64,000 nt of DNA. It comes from Ascidia mentula (lineage: Eukaryota > Chordata > Ascidiacea > Phlebobranchia > Ascidiidae). How positions within the stretch are numbered: the stretch's first letter is position 1; every line of letters starts with the position of its first letter. The position numbers and the translations under genes are program-made. Positions 31,820 through 55,060 of this stretch are shown piece after piece. Under the pieces are notes generated by a model. It had not been told where the DNA came from. It did no database searches and was given only the letters and a program-made list of their open reading frames with translations. The stretch spans positions 10,554,001 to 10,618,000 of the forward strand of contig OX387201.1 in NCBI GenBank assembly GCA_947561715.1. Direction: 5' to 3'.

Positions 31820-34800
31820 TCAAACCACAGTTGTTTCCCAACTGTTTTCACCAAGTTTCTCACAAATGCTGTCCACAGTCTTCGCAAAATGTGCTCGATC
31901 GCTGTCGCGGAAAGTTTCGGTCACCTGTGCCAGTAACATAAATGCATTCCGTTAAAAGCATAATTTCAAAACCATAGTGCCTCCCAGGAAAATAAAATAT
32001 CCTTTGTGGGTTAAAAATGGTGACTGAAACAGTTTTACATATGATTAATGGTAGTGTATGGTTCTCGTTAATTTCGAAGTGAAAGAAGTAACATTGTTTC
32101 CAATGTGTACGTTATCAGCAGTAAATTGATCAAGGTGATTAGTTAATTTGAAAAATCTTTCCTTAAGGAATATTTAATTTCCCGATTTGTTCGTTGACAA
32201 AAATCACCAGGTTACTTCTCATGAGTTGTTGTAAGATTCTATGTATTTACCTGTTCGCGGTATTTTATCAGATAAGACGCGAGCATTTGTGCCGCCACCA
32301 GCTCATTTAACTGGTTGCCATATTCCTGCAAAAATTAATTGCTCATTAACAGAAATCAGCAAAGAGGTCCACAATACCAACACAACCGTTAGTTACTTCA
32401 AAGTAGTGTTTTATCGCAAAACACCCTCAAAATACTGCATTGAAAATAGTTTTAAAGCCAAATAAAGCTATGAAAGAAGTTTGTGTCAAACAAAGGAAAA
32501 CGATGCCTGAAGAAGGTTGTGAACTAAACGTACTTTCGATTTGCTGCGTAGAAGGTCGTCCATTTCTTCCTTGCTTAAATGATCGGTGTTGGAAACGTTA
32601 ACAAAAAACCTAAAAAATTTCGTTTAAAAACAGCAGCAAAAATATGAAACAAGTATTAATAACTTACTCCTTCACCATCGTTTTGTAATTTTCAGCGTCC
32701 TTCGCGTAAAGAAGCTTGTTTGATGGAGAATCCTGTGTTCGTAACATAAAGGGGAAGATTAATCAATTTTGAGGTGTTACATTTTGCGTTTAAATCAATT
32801 TCGCATTGTTTCGTATTTGTACGCCCTATTTATCACATATTCACTTATAAACAAGTTGGATGAGGAAGCAACACACAAGAGCATGACCAAACTCTTTCGC
32901 TAGGATCAAACTTATGTATATTATGACGCAGCATTAAACCAGGAAGCACCACAGAATCGGTTCTTACTGCGTCATTTCCCTGTAGAAACGAAACACGAGT
33001 GTATGATTAAAGAAGATTAGTAACATGGGTTGATGCAAGTAGCAAGAACTATACGCGCTTGAGACGGGTTATAAAGTTCAGACATATCGCTTACGTGTCC
33101 CAACTTCCTGTTAGTAGTGGTGCAGGCGTCCATGAACGCTTGGGTAATTACGTTCAGGCAGCTGTCTACGATCGCCGTCTTGTTGGTGTCGAAGAGAAAT
33201 TCGGGGTTCTTTAGTACATTTACCCAGTAGCGCAATAACAAACTGTTATGAAGAAAAAATTTAATCGAGTTATTTTTTGAAAACTTTATTCGCCTAATTT
33301 CGTAAAGTTTTTTTTACTTAAAACAGTTTCTATTAATTTTACCTGTTAGTTTTCCAAATATGAATGACCTCTGGTTCGCTGACCTTGTGTTTGGCCGCTT
33401 CATTATCTAAATACTGGAAAAAATATCTAACTGACTTCGGTATAGGTTTTGGGCACAAGATGGCGCCAAAGACACTTTCAACGTACTCCTGAAGAGTGGT
33501 CTGAAAATCAAAATACAATTTAAGGTAAAATGGCATTTAAAGTCTTGGCAAAGTGTGATTAGTTAATTTATTAAGCGCAACAAAGCAAATTACAACGTAA
33601 AACATACCTTTGCTTTAACCATTCTCGTGAGAAACATCTCTTGAAAAGGCCGATTCATCAGGTTATCGATCCGGGCGTTTGCTTTCTTTCCACTCTTATC
33701 ATCATCCATATCCAGGCCTCCATTGGCTGAATCGTCATCACGTGGGTGAATCTGCCAAGATTGATTCGCTGTCACATTTGTTTCAACCCGAGCAATTATC
33801 GTGGGTAAGGCAGCAACAAGCATTTAGCTGTCTGCTGCGGAAACCGCCCATCGATTTTTTAATTGCAAGGTCCGACTGATCCTCCCTGCCCTCTAATGCC
33901 CCATGTATAGCTATAACCAAACAGCCCAAAACGTTAGCTTCATTTTCTCAGTTACATTGTAGCAGCGTTTTGCAGGCGGGATGTGCTGATACCCACTGGT
34001 AGACCCATGTTGAATTGGCGTCATTGAATGATTTCCTTGATTAGGAATCGCAAAGCGGTTTGGCGAAGGCCATGAAAAGCTTGTTATTGCTCTCAAATTG
34101 AAATACAGTGTCCCATGTTACTTGCTAAGGCAGTAAAACATATGTCTGAATAAACTTACCAAGTGATACAACGTTCTTCTCTCAGTTGCAAGTAGTGGAG
34201 ACTTCGAATCTTGTGACGCTGCGAAAGTTTTGGTGTTAAGCATCATAGTGTATGGAAATAACATGCCACTATTTGTCATAAATTGTCTTGGGGTAATTAA
34301 ACTTGATTGCTCAATCCATGTATTGTATTACTGCTATCATACTTTTAATAACTTCATTACAGCATGCGTCAGCCAACTGTATCAATTGATTTCCATGCAA
34401 ATTAACTAGCGATTCGCTAGCGTTTAATCAAACCAGGGTGTGGAACTAATGTGTGGTTTGCGCACAATGACAGATTTCTTCGAAAATTAAACAGCTACGG
34501 CAGTTTGTGTGATGCACGCGCAGCAAGTTCACAACCGCCAGCAAGTTTCCACTGCTCGGCGGTGTTAGCGCAAGCTGTAACAAACAGGAATTGCCTCATG
34601 CATCACCGACCACTGCTGGTCGGGGCTTTCTGCAGACGCTAGGGCTGTCAACTTTCGCAGTAAAATATAAATACAACGCATCAAAAAGATTATTTGCGAT
34701 TGATAATTGTGCAAAAACCGCGGATGAATATGTGTGTCAGCAAATTGTTGCTGGTTGACAGCCCTAGATAATACTGACTGCGTGAGCTATCGGGAAGATG

Positions 34801-37800
34801 TATATCAAAACTGTAGTTGCGGTCAAGAAACTGCTCGAATCCTCCGCGTTCGCTTTGTTCAAATTCATCACCATCTTAAAGGCGTCAGCAAAATAACATG
34901 TCGAATTGTCACTTGTTGCAGCACTTCAGTTCATTCGGAAAACCGACCCTCGCTTTGTTTATGGGACGCGTTTGGACGATTGATAGCAGTGAATTAGTCA
35001 TCGGTTTACAGTATGACGCACATAAACCAAACTTAAAGCAGGGGGAAACGGCCACAACTGACATATTGAAACACAGGACTAGAAGGAGTTATTGTGGTGA
35101 ATTACAAAAACACCGTAAAAAAACACATTTGATACCTGACATGTCATCTCCAGGCGGTCTGAGCACCACTATTGCTTTTGCTGGGACCTGCAAAAATAAG
35201 GGAAAAGCGCGTCACGGAAATTTCAACACGACACCACGGAAATGTATAAACGCGCTGTGATGAGCGACAACACGCACGTCTCAAACCACGCTATTTTACG
35301 CCATAACCGACCAATATTAATTACAATTTATCATTATGGTCAGCTCCTGAGTGACACATGTCACTCAATGCGGAGAAATCACAAGACAACGCAGCGCATT
35401 GCAAGGAACCGCTCTCAACAAAATAACCTACGTTGTAATGTTTAAGGGTGTTGAGCTTTGTGAAATGTCCATCCTGTTCGGAAGTTTTGTCGATGTCGGA
35501 CAAAATAATGCCTTCTTTGCGGTCGTTGGAACTCAGCATCTCTGTCAGAACACAACTCATGTTATGACACTTTAATATTTCGCTTCTGTGAATCATAGAG
35601 GTCAATCGAGGTAGCGCGTAGGTTACTGCTTTCAAGCTTGCAACACTATAGGCTGGCTTACGCTGTTTGACATTTTGGTTTTCCGGACATGCCACGCACG
35701 TTAACGATAATGCCCAAATTTGGCTAAAATTGCTTATAATGCACAGAGGTTAACCAACCAAATTCCAAGTCGTCAGGTTTTGGGCATTCGCTGTAAGGGC
35801 GGTCCTTGTACACAGCTTCGATGATTTTTGTTTTTGCTTGAGTGACTGTGTCCACATTCACAACTTTGACGTCCACAGTAGAATTTAATCGCTCTGATAA
35901 TTCATCAACCACAGTAGCGTGTAACACCTACAACACCAGGAATGATTTTAAACAAGTTATGAGAAGTATATTCACTTGGTAAATCCAACATTACTGTGCA
36001 ATTTTTTTTTGTGTTGCGACAATATTAGTCTTAGTGAAAACGATCTAAATTAGACCGTTGTGCAAGCGCGGTAAGTAGAAACAATAGAGACTGTACCAAG
36101 AAACCATGCGCACAGAACCATCACACGCACCACAGTTTCGTAAGAGACCTCCGACCCAAGCAGCGTCATTTCGTTCAAACTATTCATAGCTTTGTTAGCT
36201 ATGACGTCACATGGGGTGCTGGACACAAGATAGTGAATAGCTTTGGTGAGTAGGAATATAGGTTTCCCGGCGTTCTTCTACCAACACAACATGAAAAAAC
36301 TCAACACGTGAACGCAAATGACTGGACGGCAATCATATGAACTGGCTTAAAGTTAAAGCAGATCACATACCATAATACATTCGTCATAGAGAGTGATAGA
36401 CAGCCAGTGGGAAACCATTTTTTCGACAACCGACTCAGATCTGCGACAGTTAGAGAATCAGGTTACTCAACAGAGAAATCAGCGGTCTTTATCTAACATT
36501 TATCATTAAGTTTAAGGCGGAAACTTTAACCGCAGCCGCTATGCATTGTACCTTCGCAAAAGTAACTTTGGGTTCTTTGCCACATGTTTGTCAATGAGAT
36601 GAGACAACAATTCGAACATAATCCTAGAAGAAACAAAAACAACAATATTCACGACAGGGGGTATGTAAAAACAGAAGGGAAACAGCTTGACATGAGTGTG
36701 TGGTTAGCTACGCACCTTGTGTAGTAGGGAAGATCTGACAGCAGACATGCAGTCAAGTATGATGCCACGCTTCCTCTATTAAAATACATTTTAATACTAC
36801 AACATGTACATGCAAATCACCACCTGTATTGGCCACCATATTCATATATATGCTAGTAATGTTTTACATCTGTTATTTATGAACCGCGCGATGTTGTATT
36901 GCTGTAACAAACGAGACTGCGTACTTGTCTTGCACAGTAAACCGCCGCTGCTCCTCCAAAGTTCGTATGAAGGTTATAAGAAAATCCCTTTTCTTTATAA
37001 GACGAAGCCATTCATCAAGTGCTTCCATCTTGTGAACTGACAAGCGTTGCAATGCCTGCAAAAGCGAGTCATACCACATCATTAAAACAACAACCGTGAG
37101 TGTTTGGTGGATTTATATTCCTTTTGTACTAACTGTGAATATTCAATTAATTTTTGACATTTTCCCTAAAGTACGCTTCGGCATACGGCCATCAAACCGT
37201 CACGCTTATTTAAATTGAAGATTGCATTCTTACCGCCTTATCTTGTACAGGATGACCGGTGGTTTTGTTAAACAGGGTTTGTGTAAAGTAAGCTGATGTA
37301 GGTAAATAGGTGATGCGGTCCGACAAATTATCCGTGAGATTGGTCATGTAACCAACTTGCAATTCATAGTAGGCTGCAAAAAATATTTTAAATACGCTGT
37401 CACTTTTCGAAGTTATTTAAAACCCAAGAACAAAACATGAAAATAAACAACATGGTGGATTATTTACGAACATCGTTAAATTCACACTTGGCAAGCTTGT
37501 TTGATTAGTGAACCAGATAAATGCAGCAATCATGTTGTTTTTTCAGCTAATAACATATTAAAGTGGCCAGAAAAATCGCCTGCTTATCTTTTATTATTTG
37601 TACCGTTTCTCGCAGTCTCTCGGGTCTTATTTTCAAGATCATCCAACTTGCTCAGAATTAATTTTTGCTCCTGCCTTTGCTTTTTAACTCTTCGCCAACA
37701 TGCCAGTGCAACCACTATAGACACAAGAACGAAGAACACGGCCACCACCACAAATCCAATGATCAGATTGTTATTTGTACCTTGGCAGTACATTACGTCT

Positions 37801-40800
37801 GGTACCTCACTAGACCAATTGTTCGACGAAACCTAACCAAGTTCCAAATAAAATTAGATACCGCTTGTTTGCAACTTATGACAATATACCAACCTTTACT
37901 GTTATTCTACTGTTTTCGTATTTCTTGAGACTTTGGGCTCTTGCCCGACAAAACAATGATGTGCTTTCAACGAAGGAAACATAACATGCAATTGAAACAG
38001 AATTCGATGGGTACAATGTGACGACATAATCACTTTTCTTGGAATAAATATCATCGAAACCTTTGCCCTGCAAAAAAGCGACATAACCATGAAGTATAAA
38101 GCATTGCAACTAAGTGTTTGTAGTGTGGGTCACATGCAGGGAAACAACACAGCCCAACTAATTGACACAAAGAATTATCTTTTTGAAAGCATCTTCTCTT
38201 CTGGCTAAAAGGTATGTTGCTTTTATTATCATTTAATATTGCTTAGAATTTTAGCTGACCTGAATTTGAACCGTGACTGTGTCGCCCGCTGATGTAACAG
38301 TTGCGTTTCTGTTTCCATTCGACGATGTTGTTGTGCTTGCACAAGGCAATTGTGAGACTGAGGTGAGCTGCGGGTCATTCTGATACTTGGCTACACCAGC
38401 CGGAATTACTTGTTCGTTGTTGATTACCAACGATACGTTGTATGCTGCACAGAAATGTTTGGTTTAGTGTAGTCAGTTCGACACCATAGAAACATAAAGT
38501 ATATTCATATGTTTTCTTTCTTCTTTTTACGGATGCTTATGCAGTTGACACTTATATGTATACATCACAAAAGCGACATCCTGTGTACAAAAAGGAAAAA
38601 CTGTGTGGGAAACATCGTAATGAGGAAAGAGGTTTTACATTCGACACTACTGTCGACGTCACAACTTACTCCGTTGTTGTGTTGAAGAGGAAGGCAAGTT
38701 CGAACGGCGTTTCCGTTTTGCGTTGGTCCCTGGTTCGCTTGGTGTTGGACAACTAACGAGCGATGAAGTTCGATTAACTTCGCACGCCTGCGGTTCGAAA
38801 AACATTTGCTTACAAGCGTCAAACAAGAATGTATGTTAATAAACTATTAACATGTGAAGCATTTACTCCGGTTTACATTTAGTTTATTAGTCCAAAATGA
38901 TGAAGAAAAAGTTAAGATTTATCTTGTTGTTAGTTTTCCATTACGGTCGCGAAAAGGAGAACCTGTAATTTTTGCGACCAGACCCGATTACGATCTTAAC
39001 CCGTGCGCTTAATAATGGCTGTAGCACCACACAACGTAGGAAGCACACGAGGCACTCCGCCCTATATGTGTGTCAAAATGAGAGACATAATTACATGTTT
39101 TAACGACGTAATTTCGGGTTAGTAATCCACGCAATACTTGAAACAGAAAATTTGTTTGAACTTGATCGAGCTGTGGTTACCTGGTCTTTGACCTTGTCTA
39201 TTCGCAGTGAAGCAGTCTGTATGCCTCTGACGTCACTCAGTTGTATGTCGGCAATTCGGCCACCGCTAAACCCATAAACCTTTGTTAACAACTTGCACAA
39301 GGTACTCTACAATTTATAAATATGTCACATAGTAGGAAACCAACAAGTACCTCGTGAAGCCGAACAGAGTTTCCGGTTGTACGACACGAGGCAATGGGAA
39401 GTACTGCAGCAGCTGTGCTAGATTTTTCATGTATCCATCCACTGCAACAGCTAATGTGTAATTTCCGGAAGAGGTTACAGATGGACACTTGCAGGTAAGC
39501 GTGGTTTCGTTTCTGTATATGAATAGTCCATAAAACGCGAGCACTACAACAGTTTTTTCGCATCAATACCATCGCGCTACGTGTACAGGAAGTACTGTAC
39601 ACTATATAGGTGACTAACTCATAGTATTGAAACCAAGTAGCTTTAATTGGTAAATATATTATCAAATACAACAGTAGATAACAATCCGGCTTAGATAAAG
39701 CAACCGCACTTAAACTTGCCTTCTGTCACAGGTACTGGAGATATTGTCCACTATGATTCTAGCACTGTTACCCACACTCAGCGCATTGCCGTATATCGTT
39801 ATCTTGGCTCTGTTCATCACCTCAGTCGGAACAGCTCTTGAAACGTCAACTATCTTGTAAGGGGGAAAAAAGGGTAACAATGTTGTGTTTGAGTTATTGC
39901 AAGGGGAATTTGAAATGAACAAAAACAATATTTATATCAAAGAATCCTGTGTATCGCCCGTGTAAGTTAAGTTTTGCGTTGCATGTGCAGGTGTATATTG
40001 CTAGTAGTTGACTTGAAAGAAACAAACTTACTCTGTACTGAAAACGCTCAGTTGAATAAACGGCTCGGCTGTAGTTTGTTTGCAGCTTGATTCGTGAGCT
40101 GACTGGTACGGACGATGCAGACGTTTTACAAACCACACTGAGTTTATAAGAAAGAAATACGTGTTTGGAGGCTTGATTACAAAAGTTAAGATTCTAATTA
40201 CGTGGTTGATGGTTTGTAAAGACGCTCATCCAAAACACAGGAAATTTGTCCCACAGTAATGCTGGCAATGTCTGACGCCACGACACCAAGGTTCACGCCC
40301 TGAATGATGACTTCAGTTCCTCCTTCGACTGGTCCATTAAGTGGCGAAATCTGTAAAGCGGGTTGTGCAAGTCAAAAGCACGAAATTCATGCCATTGCTG
40401 TGCGACACCAAGTCAGTACGCGCTTTGCTGGACTGACGGGTGCTGCCGAAAAACATGATTTTTTAGTCCGGTTAAAAGTACAGTGTTGAAAACACTGTTG
40501 TGTTTTTGCCGTTTCGTTACTTACCGAAACAATAGTAGGGGCTGGACATTGTGCTATTTTAGTGACGGATACCAGCTGGGAACACTGATCAGCTGTTGAA
40601 CATTTGGAGGACGAATTGCACCATCGACAATCAGTAAACTGTTGGTGGAATTGCAAACACGTCCCACAATCTCGGGATCGTTTTTCACAGTTGTACACAA
40701 TGGCTAAAACACAACAAAACTTTTTATGATCAGGTTAAGCTCTTAAACTAAATTCTAACCAACCACAACGTATTTATCTGTACGACATGAAAATACATTT

Positions 40801-43800
40801 AGCAGGAAAGCCAACCGTTTACGCACAAATAAGAATACCCGTTAAATGTGAGATTTTTATCTGAGCGGAAATGGGCGGCATTTCAACAATGCACGGTTTG
40901 CGTGTCCATTCATTAAAACCCAGATTTCAATCAATCAAACCTTGTCACTTACCAGTTGGCGGGTTTGGCGAGTCGATGATGTAATTATCGCGTTGGAGAA
41001 AAACTTTCACTTCGTACCAATCATCTTGACATGAAATCTACAATGGAATTCGGAACAATCCACATCACTAAATAAGCATTGGTTGTAATGTATTTTTACC
41101 AATTCAGGCAAAGCTGTGCACTCAACCGTCATTGAATTGATATTAACGTTGGATTGGGACTTGACAATTTTACCGCACTTCTCATAAACGCACTCAAACT
41201 TTTTGGCACCCTGCGAATGGCAAAAGAAAATCAACCGATGGCAAAACAGGAAATATCAATACGAGAGAATATCCTGTCATGTGAAGCACCAGTCTGTTAA
41301 GTCCACTGACATTAAACGCGTTCGGGTTAGAGACTTAAAGTGAAAGGCGGGCCTATCCCCGTGCCACCAAACTCACGTTAAGTGTTGGATCAAGGTTCGT
41401 CGTATTCAGAATAAAAAGTCTCTCCATTCCATACGGTACAAAATACGTTGGAGCATCTGCAAAACCAACTACTGTTGGGCAATCGGAAGTGCTGGTAACT
41501 AGAGGCGAACCATCGGTACACCCCGCGCTTTTGCAAGTCTCGCCATGAATGCACCACGTACAATTCCACTGGCTTGTTTGGCATGACGAACACCTAAAAT
41601 AAATATCCATAGGGATAAAACAGCCAGCATAGGCAAAACAATCACCTCACTTACTTACAAAATGTCACTGGGTCTCACAAATTAAGTTAAACGACTATAT
41701 TAGTTTCTATAAACAAACTCATCCTTACATGGACTGGTTGTTTATTCTTGGAATTAATTGACAGTCGTACACAATTAACTGACGTTTGGATTCAGCCATT
41801 ATTCTGCCCTGGTATTCAATTGTTAATGTGACGTTGACGTGATCTGAACGAGAAATGTACAAAATGATTAAATGAACACGATATATTTTGGTTACAATCT
41901 ACCTTCATTGTGATTTGCGACCAGTGCGGAAAAAGATGATGGATTGAAAGTGCAGCTTGGTTTGGTCGGAAAGTTGGTGACCGTGGATGAATAGTTAAAG
42001 ACATCGTGGCCTGGGTCATTTCGTGTAAAGCGACACGAATACGGATGAGGTTGTGAAACCAATCGAGTTCCTTCGAAAACCAAGTTTATCTAAAAGTGAA
42101 AACCATTTAACGGTCATAATCCTTTTGGCCTTTTCCCAAATTTACGGCCAAACAGACATGTACTGTACACAGGAGACACTAATTGTGGGAACGCGACTGC
42201 AAATGCCCGAGAGACCATTCTTGTCGAGACGACCAGTACCAGTATGAGGACAAAGCAAAGCTGTTGTTACAAATATTTACATTGTAGAAGTAAAACCAAC
42301 CTCTGATGGAGTGTGTATTTGTATTTGCTTGGGTTGGATAGTTGATACCGAAGGACAAAAAGACTGATTTAAATCCGTGCTCAGCCATTGACCAATATTG
42401 CACATTTGTTTCGATGTACACCTTTAACAATAATTTACGCACGCTTAACGCACTAAAGAACATAAAATACGTATATAACCTAAACCGTGTACTCACAAGC
42501 TCTGATGTATGCACCAACCGCAAAAGGGATCTTGTGAAGACAAGCATTCTCCACATGACATCAACGATTCACAGTTTTCGAATTTTATTCGAAAAACCTG
42601 CAAACAGGTAAAATTTCTTTACACGGAAACTACAGAGAAATTATAACTTCTACCTCCATCGGTGTTATGCCCAAAACAAACTGACCATTTTCATCAGTCC
42701 GCAAATCTTTTAAAATGGGCTGAGCAGAAACGGGGATTGTTTCGGAAACTACTGTCTTCCCTCCGCGGTTGTTGGCCTTAATATTACAAATTTGATAGTA
42801 AAGATTCACATGATTCTTTATAATAACGAAATACAAAATTACCTTGAAAATCAAGCCCTGATTTGATCCAACAAATGCAACAGTTTTGTTTGAACTTTTC
42901 GTGACCACGAACGCAGACAAATCACCATACTTCGGGTCATCAAATAAAATAAAGTCACTCATTCTCGTCGGAATAAGTGAACGAACTCCAGCAATCGCCA
43001 AATGGGCTAGGTACTCCTCTGGAAAAGTACATTCGATCTAAAGAACATAGAACTAAATTACTATGATTAAAGAAAACATACTATTATACGAAACATGCAA
43101 CTAACCGATGCCGTTTCGGTGTTCGACAAAAGGGTGCAAGACATGTTCTTTCCGTCTTTATTAATAAGTTCTGCAGTCATATTGTTGTCATTGCGAAAGC
43201 AGAAACTGCGGGCACCATTAAGATGAACATTTATATCAGAGAGCTTTATCGCACAGACAGCATGTTGGTTGATTGTTGCGTTTGAAAACAGAACGAAAAG
43301 CTTTCCTTGGCTGTATTGTGCCGCAGTAACGTTTGTAAATGTAACTCCATTAACACGACAGGTAATTTCCGACTCAACATACGAATTAGGACCGTAGCTG
43401 GGAGTGCCCGAAACATTTCGGAAAATTTCGTGACATGTTCGAGAGATTCTTGCAAGTGGGGCACCTGACACCGATTTTCGAATTGTAAACAAGTGGTCAG
43501 CGGTAGACCACATGTATACGAATGATACTTTGTTCGCCTGGCCGTACTTTATGTACTTTTTAGAATCGTCGACCAAACTGAAATGATTCTTTGGAGATTT
43601 CCCTCCAGTAGGAAAATGGTAAGTTTTGATCGATGTTAATAAGCATTCGGCATCCACGTAGTTATCACCAATTGTTTTTGCGCAGCCTGGTCGTATTTCG
43701 GCTGTTCCCAAGTACAGCAAGTTGTTGTTGCCTTCGCTTTCACTTACCGCAGCGACCATGGGAACATTTGGATTGCGAACAGAAAGAATGGAATTTGCAG

Positions 43801-44425
43801 GAGCTCCACATTTCAGATCGTTGGGGTTTAAAAAAGTTTGCGACACGTCTTGCGATTTCAGCAAGTCACAGGTGCGATAGGCTGTTCCACATGCTACCAC
43901 TTTGGTTCTGTCGGTAACCAGAACTTTGTTGTAGTTATCCACACAAAAGGGAGTCTGACTGCATGGTTGTTGTGGGCAAAAGAATGGGCCATTGCAATGA
44001 ACACTGTCGTTTCCGGGTCCTGTATGAAACACAGACTTCAAGCCAAACTCACGGGAAGAAATCTGTAGAATAGCATTTGTAGTTCCAACGTAGATTGTCC
44101 CATTATTAACAACTATGGTTTGTGAAGATGGTATTGATGTTTCTGCAAACCGAAAAAACGCGACCTTTGTTTCAAAAAGTAAAAGTGAAAAATATCATAT
44201 GTCAACAAGTTTTGTTTGCGGTTACCAAACTGTACATTATCAATACATTGCCCAAAACAGGCTGTTCAACATACCATTGCAGAACGTGATGTTTCCATTA
44301 GTATACACATGTCGCAAGTTGATGATATCTGCTGCCAAGTCGCTCCGTAAGCGCTGGGCGCGTGCAACGAGGCATAAACACAAGAGACCACACCAACACA
44401 GCACCCCTGTTAATTTAGAAGCCAT
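31820..44425 (-). CDS. PLXNA: Plexin A-type semaphorin receptor, full length
   Basis: Thirty-eight exons summing to 1914 aa, the normal plexin A length. Plexins bind semaphorins outside the cell and act inside as Rap GTPase-activating proteins steering axons and cells. Exons, 5' to 3': 44275-44425, 43106-44142, 42843-43037, 42654-42776, 42497-42597, 42301-42421, 41903-42089, 41729-41843, 41377-41593, 41100-41210, 40953-41037, 40525-40703, 40202-40350, 40032-40137, 39720-39853, 39351-39512, 39181-39265, 38670-38787, 38260-38444, 37894-38067, 37604-37832, 37234-37373, 36925-37055, 36716-36775, 36552-36623, 36371-36440, 36131-36277, 35759-35927, 35432-35541, 35136-35187, 34160-34218, 33608-33751, 33343-33500, 33095-33242, 32668-32732, 32534-32609, 32251-32325, 31820-31924. 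Signal peptide ends ARA at about 23; sema about 40-500; PSI1 near 505-555 (CGECLSSQDPFCGWC), PSI2 677-705, PSI3 818-865 (CGTCLQFHQQFTDCRWC). IPT repeats lie between and after. One membrane helix near 1270-1292; GAP domain follows, keeping the catalytic Arg pair (LLLRRSE), LRYWV and DSPSNKLLYAKD. The intron after exon 39720-39853 starts with GC. Confidence 0.95.
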
Positions 44426-45562
44426 ACTAACATGCTGAACTTGATTATGAGTACACAGGATTTCAAGTACATGTGCTCCCTTATCACTAATCCTTCCTGA
44501 ACAAATAGAACAAAATAGAACTGTTAAATAACGCCAGCTCGCCAGAGAAACAAGTAACCTACTGAGACTTGCTTGTTATGATCGGTTGGCTGAGAAAAAG
44601 GCAGCATCTCTGTCGAAAAGAAATGTTTATGAAACTCTGTTACGACACCAAGCGGTAGTATAAACATGAAACTGTTGTCGCTGTACACATACAAGTTTCG
44701 TGCTTGAAGATAATTTATTTTATTTGTTAACAACAGTTTTAGTCCCGCCTGACCCATACATCTCAAAAAACCTTATCGGAATTCATGCCAGGGTATGGAA
44801 GTAAGAAACTCTAAACTCTTGTCCAACCCTCAGACTCTGTACACCGTTATGGACAATTGGTTTGTTTGGTTTGTTTTACAAACCACTCACTTATAATGTA
44901 ATGTTGAGTTGTGACAGATCTTAATTGGTATGAAATGATGTAACCATCATGTTCAGAAAAGAGATACAAATTGCTGTGCCATTTGCTGCAAAAAATCAAT
45001 GTTTCCGTTAATGGTGTGATGATTTGCAAGCACAATAATTTGTATGTGTTATGTTTAGGTGCATAAACAAATGCAGCAAACAACATGTCAGGACAGGATA
45101 TACACAACCAAGCCCAGTTTTTCCAACAAATGCAGCCGTCTCAAGCCTATCCGCTTCGGTTCCAAAATCAGACTACGTGTAATGGACTCATTACACGAAC
45201 GTTTTAAGTGAGTAAGTCGTGATTGAACAGGGAGAGTAGTAACTTGATTTCGTGCCCGCCGTTGCATTTTGTAACGTTGACAGGAAATATGTTTTTTGTG
45301 CCCATTTCCCCTTTTGCCTGACATACCACATGAACTATTGCGTAATAAGCTTTATATTTCTCTTTATAGATGGATATGAAATGTGAAAATTTGCGACAGG
45401 ACTAGGTCGTGGTACTTCAGTGGAGATTTTCTTTCGAAAAGCAGATACTTATAATCTAAAGTTATGTTAAGTATGGAGTTAGACTTTAACCTGCGGGGCA
45501 AAAATGACAACCACATAGAAACGACTTGTGGATGACTTTCTTTTAAAAAATGCGAAAAACTG
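44426..45562. other. Plexin 5' flank, shared by the tandem units
   Basis: Upstream sequence of full-length plexin, repeated at 48749-49869 and 53042-54170. The repetition implies that each truncated copy kept the ancestral promoter. No open frame stands out on either strand. The far end (45563 onward) is the last exon of truncated copy 1. Confidence 0.6.
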
Positions 45563-48500
45563 CTACATGGAGTTACAACAATAAACATGAGAATAAATAA
45601 ACACAAACACCGACAAAACCACAAAGATTATTGAGTCAGGCACCCATGGAGGAGAACCATTGATGCATTCCGCGCTCATGCAAGTCTTGCTGTGAATGCA
45701 CCACGTACAGTTCCACTGGCTTGTTTGACACGACGAATTCCTACAACATGAATCAAAGGAATTTGTGCAAATTTTTAAGACCAGATTGTTTGGGCATCTG
45801 ATGAGGAATTTTTTGGGGGTCTCTAACGTCGCAAGTACGGAATATTAAGATAATTCTTTAGTTATTTTTGGCAATTACAGATACATGTCTTTAAAAGATT
45901 TGTTATTATGTGACCCACAAAACCTATGGCCACTGTTCCGACCTGGCCGGCAAGATTCTGTTACAATATTCACACCAAACTGCACGGATGAGACCTTACA
46001 GGTCGAAACAATGGCCCTGTCTGCAGCTCACAGAAGTCATACTATCGGCTCCATCATGCTATATATAAGATGTGTCATGCTCAATATTTCTGACATTTCA
46101 ATATTTCTGACATTTCAATAGTTTTTGCCATTTCTTCCCACTTACTTACAAAGTGTCATTAGGTTAATACCGTCTCACAAATTGAGATAAACGACTATGT
46201 ATATGTAAATAATAATAAACAAACTCATCCTTACATGGACTGGTTGTTTATTCTTGTAACTAACTGACAATCGTACACAATTAACTGACGTTTGGATTCA
46301 GCCGTTATTCTGCCCTGGTATTCAATTGTTAATGTGACGTTGACGTGATCTGAACGAGAAATGAACAAAATGATTTAATGAACAAGATATATTTTGGTTA
46401 CACTCTACCTTCATTGTGATTTGCGACCAGTGCGGAAAAAGATGATGGGTTGAAAGTGCAGCTTGGTTTGGTCGGAAAGTTGGTGACTGATGATGAATAG
46501 TTAAAGACATCGTGGCCCGCGTCATTTCCCGTAAAGCGACACGAATACGGATGAGGTTGTGAAACCAATCCAGTCCCTTCGAAAACCAAGTTTATCTGCA
46601 GCATAATATGAAATGAGGACAAAGCAAAGCTTTTGTTACAAATATTACATTGTAGAAGTAAAACCAACCTCTGATGGAGTGTGTATTTGTATTTGCTTGG
46701 GTTGGATAGTTGATACCGAAGGACAAAAAGACTGATTTAAATCCGTGCTCAGCCATTGACCGATATTGCACATTTGTTTCGATGTACACCTTTAACAATA
46801 ATTTACGCACGCTTAACGCACTAATGAACATAAAATACGTATATAACCAAAAGCGTGTACTCACAAGCTCTGATGTATGCACCAACCGCAAAATGGATCC
46901 TGTGAAGACAAACATTCTCCACATGACATCAACGATACACAGTTTTCGAATTTTGTTCGAAAAACCTGCAAAAAGGTAAAGTTTCTTTACACGGAATCTA
47001 CAGAGAAATTATAACTCCTACCTCCATCGGTGTTATGCCCAAAACAAACTGACCATTCTCATCAGTCCGCAAATCTTTTAAAATGGGCTGAGCGGAAACG
47101 GGGATTGTTTCGGAAACTACTGTCTTCCCTCCGCGGTTGTTGGCCTTAATGTTTTAAATCAGATAGTAAAGATTCCCATGATTCTTTATAATAACGAAAT
47201 ACAAAATTACCTTGAAAATCAAGCCCTGATTTGATCCAACAAATGCAACAGTTTTGTTTGAACTTTTCGTAACCACGAACGCAGACAAATCACCATACTT
47301 CGGGCCATCAAATAAAATAAAGTCACTCATTCTCGTCGGAATAAGTGAACGAACTCCAGCAATCGCCAAATGGGCTAGGAACTCCTTTGGAAAAGTACAT
47401 TCGATCTAAAGAACATACAACTAAATTACTATGAATAAAGAAAACATACTATTATACGAAACATGCAACTAACCCATGCCGTTTTGGTTATCGGCAAAAG
47501 GGTGCAAGGCATGCTCTTTCCGTCTTTATTGATAAGTTCTGCAGTCATATTGTTGTCATTACGAAAGCAGAAACTGCGGGCACCATCAAGATGAACATTT
47601 ATATCAGAGAGCTTTATCGCACACACAGCATGTTGGTTGATTGTTGCGTTTGAAAACAGAACGAAAAGCTTTCCTTGGCTGTATTGTGCCGCAGTAACGT
47701 TTGTAAATGTAACTCCATTAACACGACATGTAATTTCCGACTCAACATACGAATTAGGACCGTAGCTTGGAGCGCTCGAAACATTTCGGAAAATTTCGTG
47801 ACATGTTCGAGAGATTCTTGCAAGTGGGGTACCTGACACCGATTTTCGAATTGTAAACAAGTGGTCAGCTGTAGACCACATGTATACAAATGATACTTTG
47901 TTCGCCTGGCCGTACTTTATGTATATTTTAGAATCGTCGACCAAAGTGAAATGATTCTTTGGAGTTTTCCCTACAGTAGGAAAATGGTAAGTTTTGATCG
48001 ATGTTAATAAGCATTCGGCATCCATGTGGTTGTCACCAATTGTTTTTGCGCAGCCTGGTCGTATTTCGGCTGTTCCCAAGTACAACAAGTCTCTGTTGCC
48101 TTCGCTTTCACTTACCGCAGCGATCAAGGGAACATTTGGATTGCGAACAGAAAGAATGGAATTTGCAGGAGTTCCACATTTCAGATCGTTGGGGCTTAAA
48201 AAAGTTTGCGACACGTCTTGCGATTTCAGCAAATCACAGGTGCGATAGGCTGTTCCACATGCTACCACTTTGGTTCTGTCGGTAATCAGCACTTTGTTGT
48301 AGTTATCGACACAAAAGGGAGTCTGACTGCATGGTTGTTGTGGGCAAAAGAATGGGCCATTGCAATGGATACTGTCGTTTCCAGGTCCTGTATGAAACAC
48401 AGACTTTAAGCCAAATTCACGGGAAGAAATCTGTAGAATAGCATTTGTAGTTCCAACGTAGATTGTCCCATTATTGACAACTATGGTTTGTGAAGATGGT

Positions 48501-48748
48501 ATTGATGTTTCTGCAAACCGAAAAAACGCGACCTTTATTTCAGAAAGTAAAAGTAAAAAATGTCATATGTCAACAAGTTTTGCTGCCGGCAACATACCAT
48601 TGCATAACGTGATGTTTCCATTGGTATACACATGTCGCAAGTTGATGATATCTGCTGCCAAGTCGGTTCTTAAGCGCTGGGCGCGTGCAACAAGGCATAA
48701 ACACAAGAGACCACACCAACACAGCACGCCTGTTAATTTAGAAGCCAT
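45563..48748 (-). CDS. Truncated plexin paralog 1: sema-PSI-IPT ectodomain with hydrophobic tail
   Basis: Nine exons: 48598-48748, 47474-48510, 47211-47405, 47022-47144, 46865-46965, 46670-46789, 46409-46595, 46234-46349, 45563-45740, giving 735 aa. The first eight match full-length plexin in length and phase. Protein: signal peptide 1-23, sema about 40-500, PSI 505-555, an IPT-like segment to about 676, then a shortened second PSI (SSCQTSQWNCTWCIH). Where the parent exon continues, this one ends after about 30 new residues with a hydrophobic run near 713-727 (SIIFVVLSVFVFIY) and stop at SHVYCCNSM. That tail could be a membrane helix or a GPI-anchor signal. No cytoplasmic GAP or Rho-binding region exists. 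I infer a cell-surface semaphorin-binding decoy or co-receptor. All splice sites are canonical and no frame is broken, so a pseudogene is unlikely. Confidence 0.85.
45744..46138 (+). mobile_element. Ribozyme-bearing insert in last intron of truncated plexin 1
   Basis: The matching intron of full-length plexin is only 135 bases and lacks this stretch; similarity resumes at CACTTACTTACAAA. The insert carries the hammerhead motif. It has no coding capacity for transposition. Size (about 390 bases) and ribozyme suit a non-autonomous hammerhead retroelement (retrozyme-like or Penelope-related remnant), but I see no terminal repeats. Confidence 0.45.
45977..46029 (+). ncRNA. Hammerhead-ribozyme-like motif, copy 2
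   Basis: Helix I arms CTGCA/TGCAG, helix II GACC/GGTC with loop TTACA, core GAAA intact, helix III ACA/TGT, cleavage-site C at 46021. The core CTGATGA reads CGGATGA (T4 to G), so activity is doubtful. It is antisense to the plexin copy that hosts it. Confidence 0.65.
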
Positions 48749-49869
48749 ACTAACATGCTGAATTTGATTATGAGTACACAGGATTTCAAATACATGTGCT
48801 CCCTTATCACTAATCCTTCCTGAACAAATAGAACAAAATAGAACTGTTAAATAACGCCAGCTCGCCAGAGAAACAAGTAACCTACTGAGACTTGCTTGTT
48901 ATGATCGGTTGGCCGAGAAAAAGGCAGCATCTCTGTCGAAGAGAAATATTTATGAAACTCTGTTACGACACCAAGCGGTAGTATAAACATGAAACTGTTG
49001 TCGCTGTACATTCGTGCTTGAAGATAATTTATTTTATTTGTTAACAACAGTTTCGGTCCCGCCTGATCCATACATCTTAAAAAACCTTATCGGGATTCTT
49101 GCCAGGGTATGAAAGAAAGAAACTCTAAACTCTTGTCCAACCCTCAGACTCTGTACACCGTTATGGACAATTGGTTTGTTTGGTTTGTTTTACAAACCAC
49201 TCTCTTATTATGTAATGTTAAGTTGTGACAGATCTTAATTGGTATAAAATGATGTAACCATCATGTTCAGAACAGAAATACAAAATGCTGTGCCATTTGC
49301 TGCAAAAAATCAATGTTTCCGTTAATGGTGTGATGATTTGCAAGCACAATAATTTGTATGTGTTATGTTTGGTGCATAAACAAATGCAGCAAACAACATG
49401 TCAGGACAGGATATACACAACCAAGCCCAGTTTTTCCAACAAATCCAGCCGTCACAAGCCTATCCGCTTCGGTTCCAAAATCAGACTACGTGTAAAGGAC
49501 TCATTACACGAACGTTTTAAGTGAGTAAGTCGTGATTGAACAGGGAGAGTATAGTAACTTGATTTCGTGCCCGCCGTTGCATTTTGGAACGTTGACAGGA
49601 AATATGTTTTTTGTGCCCATTTCCCCTTTTGTCTGACATACTACATGAACTATTGCGTAATAAGCTTTATATTTCTCTTTATTGATGGATATGAAATGTG
49701 ATAGGTTTAATTGCGACAGGACAAGGTCGTGGTACTTCAGTGGAGATTTTCTTTCGAAAAGCAGATACTTATAATCTAAAGTTATGTTAAGTATGGGGTT
49801 AGACTTTAACCTGCGGGGCAAAAATGACAACCACAGAAACGACTTTCTTTTAAAAAATGCGAAAAACTG
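48749..49869. other. 5' flank of truncated plexin 1 (tandem copy)
   Basis: Near-copy of the full-length plexin 5' flank. Probably carries the promoter of truncated copy 1. Nothing coding seen. Confidence 0.6.
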
Positions 49870-52800
49870 CTACATGGAGTTACAACAATAAACATGTGAA
49901 TAAATAAACACAAACACCGACAAAACCACAAAGATTATTGAGTCAGGCACCCATGGAGGAGAACCATTGATGCACTCCGCGCTCATGCAAGTCTTGCTGT
50001 GAATGCACCACGTACAGTTCCACTGGCTTGTTTGACACGACGAATTCCTACAACATAAATCAAAGTGACTTTGTGCAAATTTTTAAGACCAAATTGTTTG
50101 GGCATCTTGATGAGGAATTTTTTGGGGGTCTCCAACGTCGCAAGTACGGTATATTAAGATAATTCTTTAGTTATTTTTGGCATTTACAGATACATGTCTT
50201 TAAAAGATTTGTTATTATGTGACCCACAAAACCTATGGCCACTGTTCCGACCTGGCCGGCAAGATTCTATTACAATATTCACACCAAGCTGCACGGATGA
50301 GACCTTACAGGTCGAAACAATGGCCCTGTCTGCAGCTTACAGAAGTCATACTATCGGCTCCATCATGCTATATATAAGATGTTTAATGTTCAATATTTCT
50401 GACATTTCAATAGTTTTTGCCATTTCTTCCCACTTACTTACAAAGTGTCATTAGGTTAATACCGTCTCACAAATTGAGATAAACGACTATGTATATGTAA
50501 ATGTTAAGAAATAAACTCATCCTTACATGGACTGGTTGTTTATTCTTGGAACTAACTGACAATCGTACACAATTAACTGACGTTTGGATTCAGCCGTTAT
50601 TCTGCCCTGGTATTCAATTGTTAATGTGACGTTGACGTGATCTGAACGAGAAATGAACAAAATGATTTAATGAACAAGATATATTTTGGTTACAATCTAC
50701 CTTCATTGTGATTTGCGACCAGTGCGGAAAAAGATGATGGGTTGAAAGTGCAGCTTGGTTTGGTCGGAAAGTTGGTGACTGATGATGAATAGTTAAAGAC
50801 ATCGTGGCCCGCGTCATTTCCCGTAAAGCGACACGAATACGGATGAGGTTGTGAAACCAATCCAGTCCCTTCGAAAACCAGGTTTATCTGCAGCATAATA
50901 TGAAATGAGGACAAAGCAAAGCTGTTGTTACAAATTTTTACATTGTAGAAGTAAATCCAACCTCTGATGGAGTGTGTATTTGTATTTGCTTGGGTTGGAT
51001 AGTTGATACCGAAGGACAAAAGGACTGTTTTAAATCCGTGCTCAGCCATTGACCGATATTGCACATTTGTTTCGATGTACACCTTTAACAATAATTTACG
51101 CACGCTTAACGCACTAAAGAACATAAAATACGTATATAACCTAAACCGTGTACTCACAAGCTCTGATGTATGCACCAACCGCAAAAGGGATCTTGTGAAG
51201 ACAAGCATTCTCCACATGACATCAACGATACACAGTTTTCGAATTTTATTCGAAAAACCTGCAAAAAGGTAAAGTTTCTTTACACGGAATCTACAGAGAA
51301 ATTATAACTTCTACCTCCATCGGTGTTATGCCCAAAACAAACTGACCATTTTCATCAGTCCGCAAATCTTTTAAAATGGGCTGAGCAGAAACGGGGATTG
51401 TTTCGGAAACTACTGTCTTCCCTCCGCGGTTGTTGGCCTTAATATTATAAATTTGATAGTAAAGATTCACATGATTCTTTATAATAACGAAATACAAAAT
51501 TACCTTGAAAATCAAGCCCTGGTTTGATCCAACAAATGCAACAGTTTTGTTTGAACTTTTCGTAACCACGAACGCAGACAAATCACCATACTTCGGGTCA
51601 TCAAATAAAATAAAGTCACTCATTCTCGTCGGAATAAGTGAACGAACTCCAGCAATCGCCAAATGGCTTAAGTAATCCTTTGGAAAAGTACATTCGATCT
51701 AAAAAACATAGAACTAAATCACTTTGATTAAAGAAAAGTGACTATTATACGAAACATGCAACCAACCGATGACGTTTCGGTGTTCGACAAAGGGGTGCAA
51801 TGCTTGCTTTTTCCGTCTTTATCAATAAGTTCTGCAGTCATATTGTTGTCATTGCGAAAGCAGAAACTGCGGGCACCATCAAGATGAACATTTATATCAG
51901 AGAGCTTTATCGCACACACAGCATGTTGGTTGATTGTTGCGTTTGAAAACAGAACGAAAAGCTTTCCTTGGCTGTATTGTGCCGCAGTAACGTTTGTAAA
52001 TGTAACTCCATTAACACGACAAGTAATTTCCGACTCAACATACGAATGAGGACCGTAGCTTGGAGCGCTCGAAACATTTCGGAAAATTTCGTGACATGTT
52101 CGAGAGATTCTTGCAAGTGGGGTACCTGACACCGATTTTCGAATTGTAAACAAGTGGTCAGCGGTAGACCACATGTATACGAATGATACTTTGTTCGCCT
52201 GGCCGTACTTTATGTACTTTTTAGAATCGTCGACCAAACTGAAATGATTCTTTGGATATTTCCCTCCAGTAGGAAAATGGTAAGTTTTGATCGATGTTAA
52301 TAAGCATTCGGCATCCACGTAGTTGTCACCAATTGTTTTTGCGCAGCCTGGTCGCATTTCGGCTGTTCCCAAGTACAACAAGTCTCTGTTGCCTTCGCTT
52401 TCACTTATCGCAGCGACCAAGGGAACATTTGGATTGCGAACAGAAAGAATGGAATTTGCAGGAGTTCCACATTTCAGATCGTTGGGGTTTAAAAAAGTTT
52501 GCAACATGTCTTGCGATTTCAGCAAATCACAGGTGCGATAGGCTGTTCCACATGCTACCACTTTGGCTCTGTCGGTAACCAGAACTTTGTTGTAGTTATC
52601 GACACAAAAGGGAGTCTGACTGCATGGTTGTTGTGGGCAAAAGAATGGGCCATTGCAATGGATACTGTCGTTTCCAGGTCCTGTATGAAACACAGACTTT
52701 AAGCCAAACTCACGGGAAGAAATCTGTAGAATAACATTTGTAGTTCCAACGTAGATTGTCCCATTATTTACAACTATGGTTTGTGAAGATGGTATTGATG

Positions 52801-53041
52801 TTTCTGCAAACCGAAAAAACGCGACCTTTATTTCAGAAAGTAAAAGTAAAAAATGTCATATGTCAACAAGTTTTGCTGCCGGCAACATACCACTGCATAA
52901 CGTGATGTTTCCATTGGTATACACATGTCGCAAGTTGATGATATCTGCTGCCAAGTCGGTTCTTAAGCGCTGGGCGCGTACAACAAGGCATAAACACAAG
53001 AGACCACACCAGCACAGCACGCCTGTTAATGTAGAAGCCAT
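49870..53041 (-). CDS. Truncated plexin paralog 2: sema-PSI-IPT ectodomain with hydrophobic tail
   Basis: Nine exons: 52891-53041, 51767-52803, 51504-51698, 51315-51437, 51158-51258, 50962-51082, 50701-50887, 50527-50641, 49870-50047, again 735 aa with the same domain order as copy 1. Signal peptide MASTLTGVLCWCG; sema, PSI and IPT-like parts are intact. The tail exon has the same length (178 bases) as in copy 1 and encodes the identical tail. The two base differences I see there (GAA/GAG for Glu, TCT/TCA for Ser) are silent, as expected of a translated exon under selection or of very recent duplication. One donor reads GTTGGT where its sisters have GTTAGT. A few residues in the sema domain differ. 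No break in frame was found. Confidence 0.85.
50048..50430 (+). mobile_element. Ribozyme-bearing insert in last intron of truncated plexin 2
   Basis: Same insert as in truncated copy 1, at the same place, so it was present before the unit was copied. It carries hammerhead copy 3, and no protein coding capacity is seen. Confidence 0.45.
50286..50348 (+). ncRNA. Hammerhead-ribozyme-like motif, copy 3
   Basis: Best helix I of the set: AAGCTGCA (50286-50293) against TGCAGCTT (50341-50348), eight perfect pairs. Helix II GACC/GGTC, loop TTACA, GAAAC intact, helix III ACA/TGT, cleavage-site C at 50340. Core reads CGGATGA instead of CTGATGA, as in copies 2 and 4. Confidence 0.68.
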
Positions 53042-54170
53042 ACTACCATGCTGAACTTGATTATGAGTACAGGATTTCAAATTCATGTGCTCCCTTATCA
53101 CAAAACCTTCCTGAACAAATATAACAAAATAGAACTGTTAAATAACGCCAGCTCGCCAGAGAAACAAGTAACCTACTGAGACTTGCTTGTTATGATCGGT
53201 TGGCTGAGAAAAAGGCAACATCTCTGTCGAAGAGAAATTTTTCCAAAATTCTGTTACGACACCAAGCGGTAGTATAACATGTAACTACTGTCGCTGTACA
53301 CTTTAAAAGTTACGGATTGAAAAGAGAATTTATTGTAATTGGTGGCAACAGCTTCGGTCCCGCCTGACCCGTACATCTTAAAAACCTTATTGGAATTCTT
53401 GCTAGGTTTTAGAAACAAGAAACTGTAAACTCTAGTCCAACCCTCAGACGTTGGAAGATTGGTTTGTTTGGTGTGGTATCCACTCTTATAATGTAATGTT
53501 AAGTTGTGACAGATCTTTCTTGGTATAAAATGATGTAACCATAATGTTCAGAAAAGAGATTACAAATTGCTGTGCCATTTGCTGCTAAAAATCAATGTTT
53601 CCGTTAATGGTGTGATGATTTGCAAGCACAATAATTTGTATGTATTATGTTCAGGTGCAAAAACAAATGCAGAAAACAACATGTCAGGACAGGATATACA
53701 CAACCAAGCCAGTTTTTCCAATAAATGCAGCCATCACAAGCCTATCCGCTTCGGTTCCAAAATCAGACTACGCGTAAAGGACTCATTACATGAACGTTCA
53801 AGTGAGTAAATCGTGATTGAACAGGGAGAGTAGTAACTTGATTTCGTGCCCGCCGTTGCATTTTGGAACGTTGACAGGAAAGATGTTGTGCCCATTTCCC
53901 CTTTTGCCTGACATACCACATGAACTATTGCGTAATAAGCTTTATATTTCTCTTTATTGATGAGTATGAAATGTGAAAATTTGCGACAGGACTAGGTCGT
54001 GGTACTTCAGTGAAGATTTTGTTTCGAAAAGCATATACTTATAATCTAAAGTTATGTTAAGTATGGGGTTAGAGTATACCCTGGGGCAAAAATGCAACCA
54101 AAGAAACGACTTATGGATGACTTTCTTTCAAAAAATGTGAAAAACTACTGCATGGAATTTCAACAATAAA
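53042..54170. other. 5' flank of truncated plexin 2 (tandem copy)
   Basis: Diverged copy of the plexin 5' flank with several small deletions relative to the other two. Similarity fades at about 54.17 kb, where the remnant fourth unit begins. Confidence 0.55.
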
Positions 54171-55060
54171 CACCGATTTTTTTGGGCATCTTGACGATGA
54201 ATTTTTTGGGAGTCTTTAGTGTCGCAAGTGCGTAATATAAGAGAATTCTTTAGTTATATTGGGAAATTACTGACTCGTGTCTTTATAGATGTTTAATTCG
54301 GTGACCTGCAAGACCTATGACCACTGTTCTGACCTGGCCGGCTAGATTCTATTCCAATATTCACACCAAGCTGCACGGATGAGACCTTATAGGTCGAAAC
54401 AATGGCCCTGTCTGCAGCTCACATAAGTCATACTATCGGCTCCATAATGCTATATATAAGATGTGTAATGTTCAATATTTTGGATATATGAACAGTTTTT
54501 GCCATTTTTTCCCGACGCAGAAATAAACACTAAAATTTCGCACATGTCAGGAAAAATCCTAATGTACGGCAACACTATAATAAATGGCACATGCAAATAA
54601 CTGAGACACCATCCCTTGTCAAGACTCTTGTTGCAAATATTACATTGTAACACCATAAAATCGTTTCTGATTAAGTGTGTGTTGTATTTGCTTGGATTGG
54701 AAAGTTGATACCGAAAAATAATAAGAATAATTTACATCCGTACTCAACCATTGGCTGATGTTGCAAATTTGTTTCGACGTTCGCCTTTAACGATAACAAC
54801 AATTTATGTACAAATTAAAATGAAATACGTTTTAAACCAAAACCGTTTACTCACAAGCTCTGATGTATGCATGAACCGCAAAAGGGATCTTGTGAAGACA
54901 AGCATTCTCCACATGACATCAAAGATACACAGTTTCGAATTTGATTCGAAAAACCTGCAAACAGGTGTTATGCATTTAATCGGAGCGAGCGCTGAGCACA
55001 TGCAACAAGGCATACACAAACGAGTATCAAATTCGAAACTGTATAAACAAACGAATATTT
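54170..55060 (-). pseudogene. Ruined fourth plexin unit
   Basis: Pieces of the truncated-plexin unit in the expected order: the last-intron insert with its ribozyme (about 54.18-54.48 kb), a diverged match to the sixth exon (about 54.67-54.80 kb), a close match to the PSI1 exon (about 54.85-54.96 kb), and a scrap like the first exon near 55.0 kb. The large sema exon and others are missing, so no protein is possible. It shows that the array once had at least four units. Confidence 0.7.
54368..54419 (+). ncRNA. Hammerhead-ribozyme-like motif, copy 4
   Basis: AAGCTGCA and TGCAGCT form helix I, GACC/GGTC helix II with loop TTATA, GAAAC intact, helix III ACA/TGT, cleavage-site C at 54412. Core CGGATGA as in copies 2 and 3. 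It sits in the ruined fourth unit. Confidence 0.62.

What the first reader, a model, noticed from the sequence alone, without database searches (positions are those of the whole stretch)
45563..53041. Two intact truncated plexins: semaphorin-receptor ectodomains on a new membrane tail
Seen: two adjacent nine-exon genes copy the first eight plexin exons with the same lengths and phases, then end in a changed ninth exon encoding half a PSI domain plus a hydrophobic tail and stop. Total coding length is 736 codons in each. Known: the plexin GAP and Rho-binding regions are cytoplasmic and essential for signalling. Inference: these encode surface decoys or co-receptors for semaphorins that cannot signal by themselves, beside the full receptor and probably under the same promoter. 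I know of no such gene-encoded class.
Basis: partly seen in the sequence, partly recalled or inferred. Interest (0 to 1): 0.88.

Follow-up and report, generated by a model that had tools for sequence, protein, structure and literature searches.

The report
Twin truncated plexins with transposon-derived tails
In the sea squirt Ascidia mentula, two extra copies of a cell-guidance receptor gene keep the outer ligand-binding part but end in a short greasy tail that came from a mobile DNA element, so they could act as surface decoys that bind signals without passing them on.

Summary
Observation confirmed. Two adjacent nine-exon genes (c2, 48748-45563; c3, 53041-49870; minus strand) copy exons 1-8 of the neighbouring full plexin (c1) with identical lengths and phases, standard splice sites and an open frame of 735 residues. 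Exon 9 keeps half of PSI domain 2, then a hydrophobic tail. New here: the tail matches, in frame, the 3' end of a retroposon with 190 close matches in this genome. The truncation removes PSI cysteine 8, and the only other cysteine lost is cysteine 2, its disulfide partner. The genome is Ascidia mentula, chromosome 5. A fourth copy is a dead relic. Function is not shown. For: no coding indels against 26 in non-coding DNA; cysteines kept. Against: c2-c3 codon positions look nearly neutral (17/19/24) and c3 replacements are near neutral. Best reading: surface-tethered, probably GPI-anchored, non-signalling semaphorin receptors; main rival: young drifting partial duplicates. RNA-seq ERR10378036 could decide. 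Precedents: Amphimedon plexins with short intracellular parts; a retroposon-made decoy receptor in mammals.

The parts
41377..44425 (-). c1: exons 1-9 of the full plexin (Sema, PSI1, IPT1, complete PSI2), continuing to the TM and GAP exons
   Evidence: splice models; PDB hit Plexin-A4 E=1.2e-31
37587..37832 (-). c1 native transmembrane exon with basic stop-transfer segment
   Evidence: translation; best 19-residue hydropathy 3.35
35727..35927 (-). c1 Rho-GTPase-binding domain exon
   Evidence: PF20170 E=2.5e-14
33080..33274 (-). c1 plexin RasGAP exon (others at 36876-37112 and about 33342-33566)
   Evidence: PF08337
45563..48748 (-). c2: truncated plexin gene, nine exons, 735 aa
49870..53041 (-). 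c3: truncated plexin gene, nine exons, 735 aa
   Evidence: Pfam
45563..45740 (-). c2 exon 9: half of PSI2 (C2 and C8 absent), NGS, hydrophobic tail, stop
49870..50047 (-). c3 exon 9: same; differs from c2 at 2 of 178 nt, both synonymous
49884..49955 (-). c3 tail segment matching the 3' end of the dispersed retroposon (41 nt at 90%, then about 31 nt of weaker match)
45577..45648 (-). c2 tail segment matching the same retroposon 3' end
   Evidence: end set by analogy with c3
50231..50389 (-). intron 8 of c3 holds a dispersed MITE-like repeat (same in c2, about 45920-46080); not matched in c1
   Evidence: query positions about 497-655 recur on many contigs
48751..49868 (.). spacer upstream of c2 (3% different from the c1 upstream spacer 44428-45560; 8% from the c3 one)
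54169..54966 (-). c4: decayed relic of a fourth copy (pieces of intron 8, exon 6 and exon 5 only)

Best explanation
c2 and c3 are young tandem copies of the 5' half of a tunicate plexin gene whose last exon was cut in PSI2 and fused, in frame, to the 3' end of a retroposon. The fused exon supplies a hydrophobic C-terminus and the stop. Each gene would make a secretory-pathway protein (signal peptide, Sema, PSI1, IPT1, three-disulfide half PSI2) held at the cell surface. The anchor is most likely GPI (candidate omega site N704-G-S, spacer PPWVPD, about 20 hydrophobic residues, no basic cytoplasmic stretch), or else a transmembrane segment with a 3-residue tail. It keeps the Sema domain, which binds semaphorins in known plexins, but has no Rho-binding or GAP domain, so it would bind semaphorin, or pair with full plexin, without signalling: a decoy or co-receptor. 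Shown: gene structure, retroposon origin of the tail, frame retention, cysteine pattern. Inferred: expression, anchoring, ligand binding, decoy effect.
For: All splice sites and a 736-codon frame are intact in both copies. Between c2 and c3 there are 0 indels in 2208 coding bases against 26 events in 3086 non-coding bases (Fisher 1.7e-6); using only introns and downstream spacer (9 in 2013 bases) about 9.9 are expected, P about 5e-5 by my arithmetic. Tail: 41 nt at 90% plus a weaker extension to a retroposon end with 190 genome matches at up to 3 mismatches, 0 in the reversed control. The aligned frame is open for 33 or more codons in 8 of 9 element copies read, and reads WVPDSITFMVLSV against WVPDSIIFVVLSV; the tail is more hydrophobic (2.33 against 1.53-1.81). 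Of 37 cysteines in the shared 708 residues only one differs, C678N; by homology it is PSI C2, whose partner C8 (RON Cys533-Cys567, PMC3405059) is lost by the truncation. Replacements on the c2 and c3 branches are more conservative than a neutral draw (P=0.03). Possible ligands: Sema-domain matches at five other sites (7 matches, 2 with a stop inside).
Against: Codon positions of c2-c3 differences are 17/19/24, near neutral, and N:S on the c3 branch is 17:6, about the neutral 72% N. Overall coding divergence (2.7%) is close to the downstream spacer (3.0%) and intron 8 (3.1%). Absence of nonsense changes is not significant (P=0.10) nor is the excess of synonymous changes (P=0.06). Gene conversion with c1 may have helped to keep exons 1-8 intact (mosaic). 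About one in ten stop-free shuffles of the tail DNA is as hydrophobic (488 of 5156). N704 also lies in a glycosylation sequon, which competes with use as an omega site. A fourth copy has died. No expression data, GPI predictor or structure was run; the tail is less hydrophobic than the c1 native TM (3.35).
Confidence: 0.5

Rival explanations
1. c2 and c3 are young partial duplicates with no useful protein, intact only because they are recent and partly homogenised by gene conversion; c4 shows where they are heading.
For: Near-neutral codon positions and N:S on c3; coding divergence about equal to spacer divergence; dead relic c4 with lost exons and a lost cysteine.
Against: No coding indel where about 10-19 are expected; c2-c3 dN/dS 0.54, p=0.037; conservative replacements and cysteines kept; exons 7-9 differ at 4 of 480 sites against 16 of 536 in introns 7-8.
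Confidence: 0.33
2. The copies are alternative 5' cassettes of the full receptor: exon 8 of c2 or c3 is spliced to exon 9 of c1, giving full plexins with different Sema domains, as in clustered protocadherins; the truncated exon 9 is a by-product.
For: Exon 8 ends in the same phase in all three and the strand order is right; each copy has its own upstream region.
Against: Splicing would skip a good terminal exon and the whole c1 5' part, across introns of about 4.6 and 8.9 kb, where introns 1-7 of these copies are 56-211 bp; exon 9 and its frame are kept.
Confidence: 0.06
3. c2 and c3 are two alleles of one truncated gene placed in tandem by the assembler.
For: They differ by 2.7% in coding sequence, within the range of allelic difference in ascidians (recalled).
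Against: Upstream spacers differ by 8.2% with 17 indel events; HiFi assembly at 74-fold, QV 64.9, with haplotypic duplications purged (PMC11109543, passages).
Confidence: 0.04
4. The proteins are made but act in solution or inside the cell: the tail is trimmed off or the half PSI2 retains them in the ER.
For: The hydrophobic stretch is only moderately hydrophobic and contains a histidine; PSI2 is incomplete.
Against: The remaining six PSI2 cysteines form three complete pairs by homology.
Confidence: 0.07

Closest known systems
Plexins with short intracellular parts in the sponge Amphimedon queenslandica (Plexin-A1 to -A4; PMC6374515, abstract and passages)
   Same: Gene-encoded plexins without conserved intracellular domains, beside full plexins
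   Different: Longer ectodomain and an ordinary intracellular stub as described; no retroposon tail mentioned in the passages seen. A word search for Ciona, tunicate and Urochordata in that paper's main text found none
IL18R1-Short, a LINE2-derived truncated decoy receptor in mammals (PMC13232192, abstract only)
   Same: A retrotransposon insertion gives a receptor a new 3' end without its signalling domain; dampens signalling
   Different: An isoform of the same gene made by an intronic polyadenylation signal, not separate tandem genes; expression and effect were tested there
Met and Ron receptors (passages) and GPI-anchored Sema7A (recalled)
   Same: Sema-PSI ectodomains on other C-termini
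   Different: Met and Ron signal by a kinase; Sema7A is a ligand, not a plexin
Solved Sema-PSI(-IPT-PSI) fragments of plexins A1, A2, B1 and Drosophila Plexin A
   Same: Fragments of 523-715 residues, about this extent, were produced and solved; some are recalled as semaphorin complexes
   Different: Engineered constructs, not natural genes

Membership tests
Plexin receptor | Sema domain followed by PSI and IPT domains | tested here: met
   c3: Sema 3.5e-8, PSI 3e-8, no IPT/TIG call; c1, of the same extent, aligns through the IPT1 and PSI2 region to Plexin-A4
Plexin receptor | Cytoplasmic Rho-binding and RasGAP domains | tested here: not met
   The frame stops after the tail in c2 and c3; at this locus these domains were found only in c1
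GPI-anchored protein | N-terminal signal sequence | tested here: met
   Hydrophobic N-terminus, Kyte-Doolittle up to 2.18; hydropathy only, no dedicated predictor run
GPI-anchored protein | Small omega site, short spacer, hydrophobic C-terminal tail, no cytoplasmic stretch | tested here: inconclusive
   N704-G-S, PPWVPD, IIFVVLSVFVFIYSHVYCC, NSM-stop; tail rather long, N704 also a sequon; rules recalled, no predictor available
Transposon-derived truncated decoy receptor | 3' end of the coding sequence from a transposable element | tested here: met
Transposon-derived truncated decoy receptor | Signalling domain lost, ligand-binding domain kept | tested here: met
   that this Sema domain binds a ligand is inferred
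Transposon-derived truncated decoy receptor | Expressed and reduces signalling of the full receptor | not testable with these tools
   no reads or assays here
Duplicated pseudogene | Disabled reading frame or splice sites | tested here: not met
   c2 and c3 intact; relic c4 is disabled
Duplicated pseudogene | Neutral substitution pattern | tested here: inconclusive
   Codon positions 17/19/24 but no coding indels and dN/dS 0.54

The most novel reading that the evidence does not exclude
A retroposon 3' end has given a chordate a gene-encoded, GPI-anchored plexin: a duplicated semaphorin-receptor ectodomain that lost its signalling half in one step, then lost the orphaned cysteine of the broken PSI2 disulfide and gained a more hydrophobic tail, and now serves as a decoy or co-receptor array beside the full receptor.
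Probability: 0.33. Interest if true: 0.75.

Novelty: new variant of a known kind. Interest (0 to 1): 0.58.

Why it matters
If expressed, these genes show how one retroposon end can turn a duplicated receptor into an anchored, non-signalling binder, with a visible second step (removal of the orphaned cysteine). The retroposon-made decoy that I saw described (IL18R1-Short) is an isoform of its receptor gene; here the decoy would be freed as its own gene and amplified, in a tunicate, the sister group of vertebrates (recalled), and in a pathway whose receptor architecture is described as largely conserved throughout all clades surveyed (PMC6374515). Existing RNA-seq can test it directly.

Tried and rejected
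Sponge origin: considered because of the Amphimedon precedent. The eleven sponge assemblies whose abstracts gave a chromosome count have 14-25, and Halisarca caerulea (195.70 Mb) has 488 scaffolds, so rejected.

Tail as unique invention: rejected. Tail taken from the LINE inside the window (55.9-59.8 kb): a 20-nt motif with up to 3 mismatches has no other match in the window.

LINE or SINE: the 4.3 kb around one copy (L063) shows no reverse transcriptase frame that I recognised by eye (no family search run), so I call it a retroposon only.

Shared promoter: rejected. Exon 6 acceptor: corrected.

Paper searches gave nothing useful.
Full report
What is there. On the minus strand lie three tandem copies of a plexin 5' part. 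c1 (44425 down to 41377 and onward) is the start of a full plexin; c2 (48748-45563) and c3 (53041-49870) stop in exon 9. Splice models show eight exons of identical lengths and phases in all three, standard splice sites, and in c2 and c3 a ninth exon of 178 nt ending in a stop, 736 codons in all. A whole-genome search with the sema exon finds three matches, these copies. Matches to the plexin GAP (15) and Rho-binding domain (6) fall at three places, all on the same chromosome. c1 has its own transmembrane, Rho-binding and GAP exons. A fourth unit upstream of c3 survives only as pieces of exons 5 and 6 and intron 8 (54169-54966), degraded; tblastn at E up to 1 found no other c4 exon in the window or the next 40 kb, though a piece of the upstream spacer recurs at L021:4296-4424 at about 81%.

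Which animal. The mitochondrial contig (19,461 bases) has cox1, nad1 and cob that read sensibly with AGA and AGG as glycine, the ascidian code. Its length and the eight chromosome lengths seen here (27.92, 19.88, 23.17, 22.72, 22.34, 21.17, 19.87 and 19.66 Mb) match the published Ascidia mentula assembly kaAscMent1.1 (passages of PMC11109543; chromosome 5 is given there as 22.35 Mb, and the span as 197.0 Mb in 95 scaffolds against 195.8 Mb in 79 contigs here). The window is chromosome 5, 10,554,001-10,618,000.

Where the tail came from. The c1 exon 9 encodes a whole PSI domain. In c2 and c3 the match to c1 ends near ...NGSP (84% DNA identity over 105 nt for c3). The following 41 nt match 18 other places listed (16 of them at 90% over 41 nt, one at 88% over 43, one at 78% over 72). 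Reading eight of these shows the 3' end of a retroposon, followed in 7 of 8 by ATAAACATGATTTGATTTG-type repeats. A 44-nt core with up to 3 mismatches occurs 190 times in the genome and 0 times in the reversed control. Local alignment of the c3 tail with 8 element copies scores 66-80 against a largest shuffle score of 48 (300 shuffles each). The homologous reading frame is open for 33 or more codons in 8 of 9 element copies and 18 in the ninth; a typical copy reads WVPDSITFMVLSVPMPFHFLVYC where the genes have WVPDSIIFVVLSVFVFIYSHVYCC. The gene tail is more hydrophobic (2.33 against 1.53-1.81), though 488 of 5156 stop-free shuffles of the tail DNA reach 2.33, so base composition alone does this in about one case in ten. 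Intron 8 of c2 and c3 also holds a dispersed MITE-like repeat that did not match in c1 (58 matches reported, 40 of 1394 candidates scored).

How the array grew. Upstream spacers of c1 and c2 are 97% identical, while that of c3 is 92% identical to both; the spacers downstream of c2 and c3 differ by 3.0%. So the last event probably duplicated a truncated gene together with its downstream spacer. Site patterns along the gene alternate, which points to gene conversion among the copies and weakens any simple reading of substitution counts.

Is the product under selection? Results for: no indel in 2208 coding bases between c2 and c3 against 26 events in 3086 non-coding bases (P(0)=8e-9 with all non-coding; with introns and downstream spacer only, 9 in 2013, about 5e-5 by arithmetic). 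dN/dS is 0.29 (c1-c2), 0.37 (c1-c3) and 0.54 (c2-c3, p=0.037). Replacements on the c2 and c3 branches are more conservative than neutral draws (P=0.03), no cysteine is gained or lost in exons 1-8 (P=0.015 for 53 replacements), and exon 9 differs at 2 of 178 sites, both synonymous. Results against: codon positions 17/19/24 for c2-c3 (chi-square about 1.3, p about 0.5 by arithmetic), N:S of 16:11 (c2) and 17:6 (c3) against a neutral 72% N, no nonsense in 60 changes with P=0.10, and P=0.06 for the excess of synonymous changes. Coding divergence, 2.7%, hardly differs from downstream spacer and intron 8 at 3.0-3.1%. I read this as relaxed constraint with the frame still kept, or a mixture of constraint and divergence. 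About 13 variable residues cluster at 378-407, next to the most divergent intron (intron 2, 9 of 68).

The cysteine argument. PSI domains pair C1-C4, C2-C8, C3-C6 and C5-C7: RON Cys527-545, 533-567, 536-552, 548-558 (PMC3405059, passages). c1 PSI2 has all eight in register with Plexin-A4. c2 and c3 lack C8 because of the truncation and have Asn in place of C2. Of 37 cysteines in the shared 708 residues, C678N is the only one that differs among the copies. Given that one is lost, hitting the orphan by chance is about 1 in 37. The remaining six make three full pairs by homology.

Mechanism, committed. I think it most likely (0.5) that c2 and c3 make surface-tethered Sema-PSI-IPT proteins that bind semaphorin or plexin without signalling. 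GPI anchoring is more likely than a plain transmembrane end, because the hydrophobic stretch runs to 3 residues from the end with no basic residues after it and is preceded by N-G-S and a short spacer; these rules are recalled, no predictor was run, and N704 is also a glycosylation sequon. Fragments of about this extent of other plexins were produced and solved. Sema-domain matches elsewhere in the genome (7 at five sites, 2 with a stop inside) could be ligands, but I did not establish that they are semaphorins.

What is known. Junqueira Alves and colleagues (PMC6374515; abstract and passages) report plexins as largely conserved in domain structure but list four Amphimedon plexins with short intracellular parts; a word search found no Ciona, tunicate or Urochordata in its main text. 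A LINE2-derived truncated IL18R1 is a decoy in mammals (PMC13232192, abstract). My searches of the held library (listings) showed no title of a truncated plexin gene with a transposon tail; most subscription papers are not held.

Verdict. A real, intact pair of truncated plexin genes with a retroposon-derived end: a new variant of known kinds, worth a direct RNA test, function unproven.

Noticed in passing
window 55874-59825 (+): A LINE-like element with CCHC, endonuclease and reverse transcriptase-like stretches in two overlapping open frames, next to the relic c4; identified by eye from the translation only.
   Followed up: no
window 60413-62987 (+): BEL/Pao-like gag and pol frames (60413-61489 and 61419-62987), by eye from the translation.
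   Followed up: no
window 43005-43162 (c1) and homologous stretches of c2 and c3: Cluster of replacements at residues 378-407 in all three copies, next to intron 2, which differs at 9 of 68 sites between c2 and c3: hot spot, old tract left by gene conversion, or diversifying selection.
   Followed up: partly
G000:C69 7.105 Mb, 5.992 Mb and the window: The three places with plexin GAP and Rho-binding matches lie on one chromosome. tblastn with c1 and c3 also hits the pieces fetched beside the other two (L026, L029); I did not work out whether truncated copies exist there.
   Followed up: partly
G000:C69:21587812-21650571: The retroposon end recurs at spacings of about 9.2-9.3 kb for several copies, suggesting a tandem array of a 9.2 kb unit.
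   Followed up: no
c1 introns 6 (42090-42300) and 1 (44143-44274): c1 introns 6 and 1 are about 138 and 45 nt longer than in c2 and c3; insertion in c1 or loss in the truncated lineage.
   Followed up: no
c2/c3 residues 678 and 704: The C678N change and the new N704 each create an N-glycosylation sequon (NSS, NGS) absent from c1.
   Followed up: no
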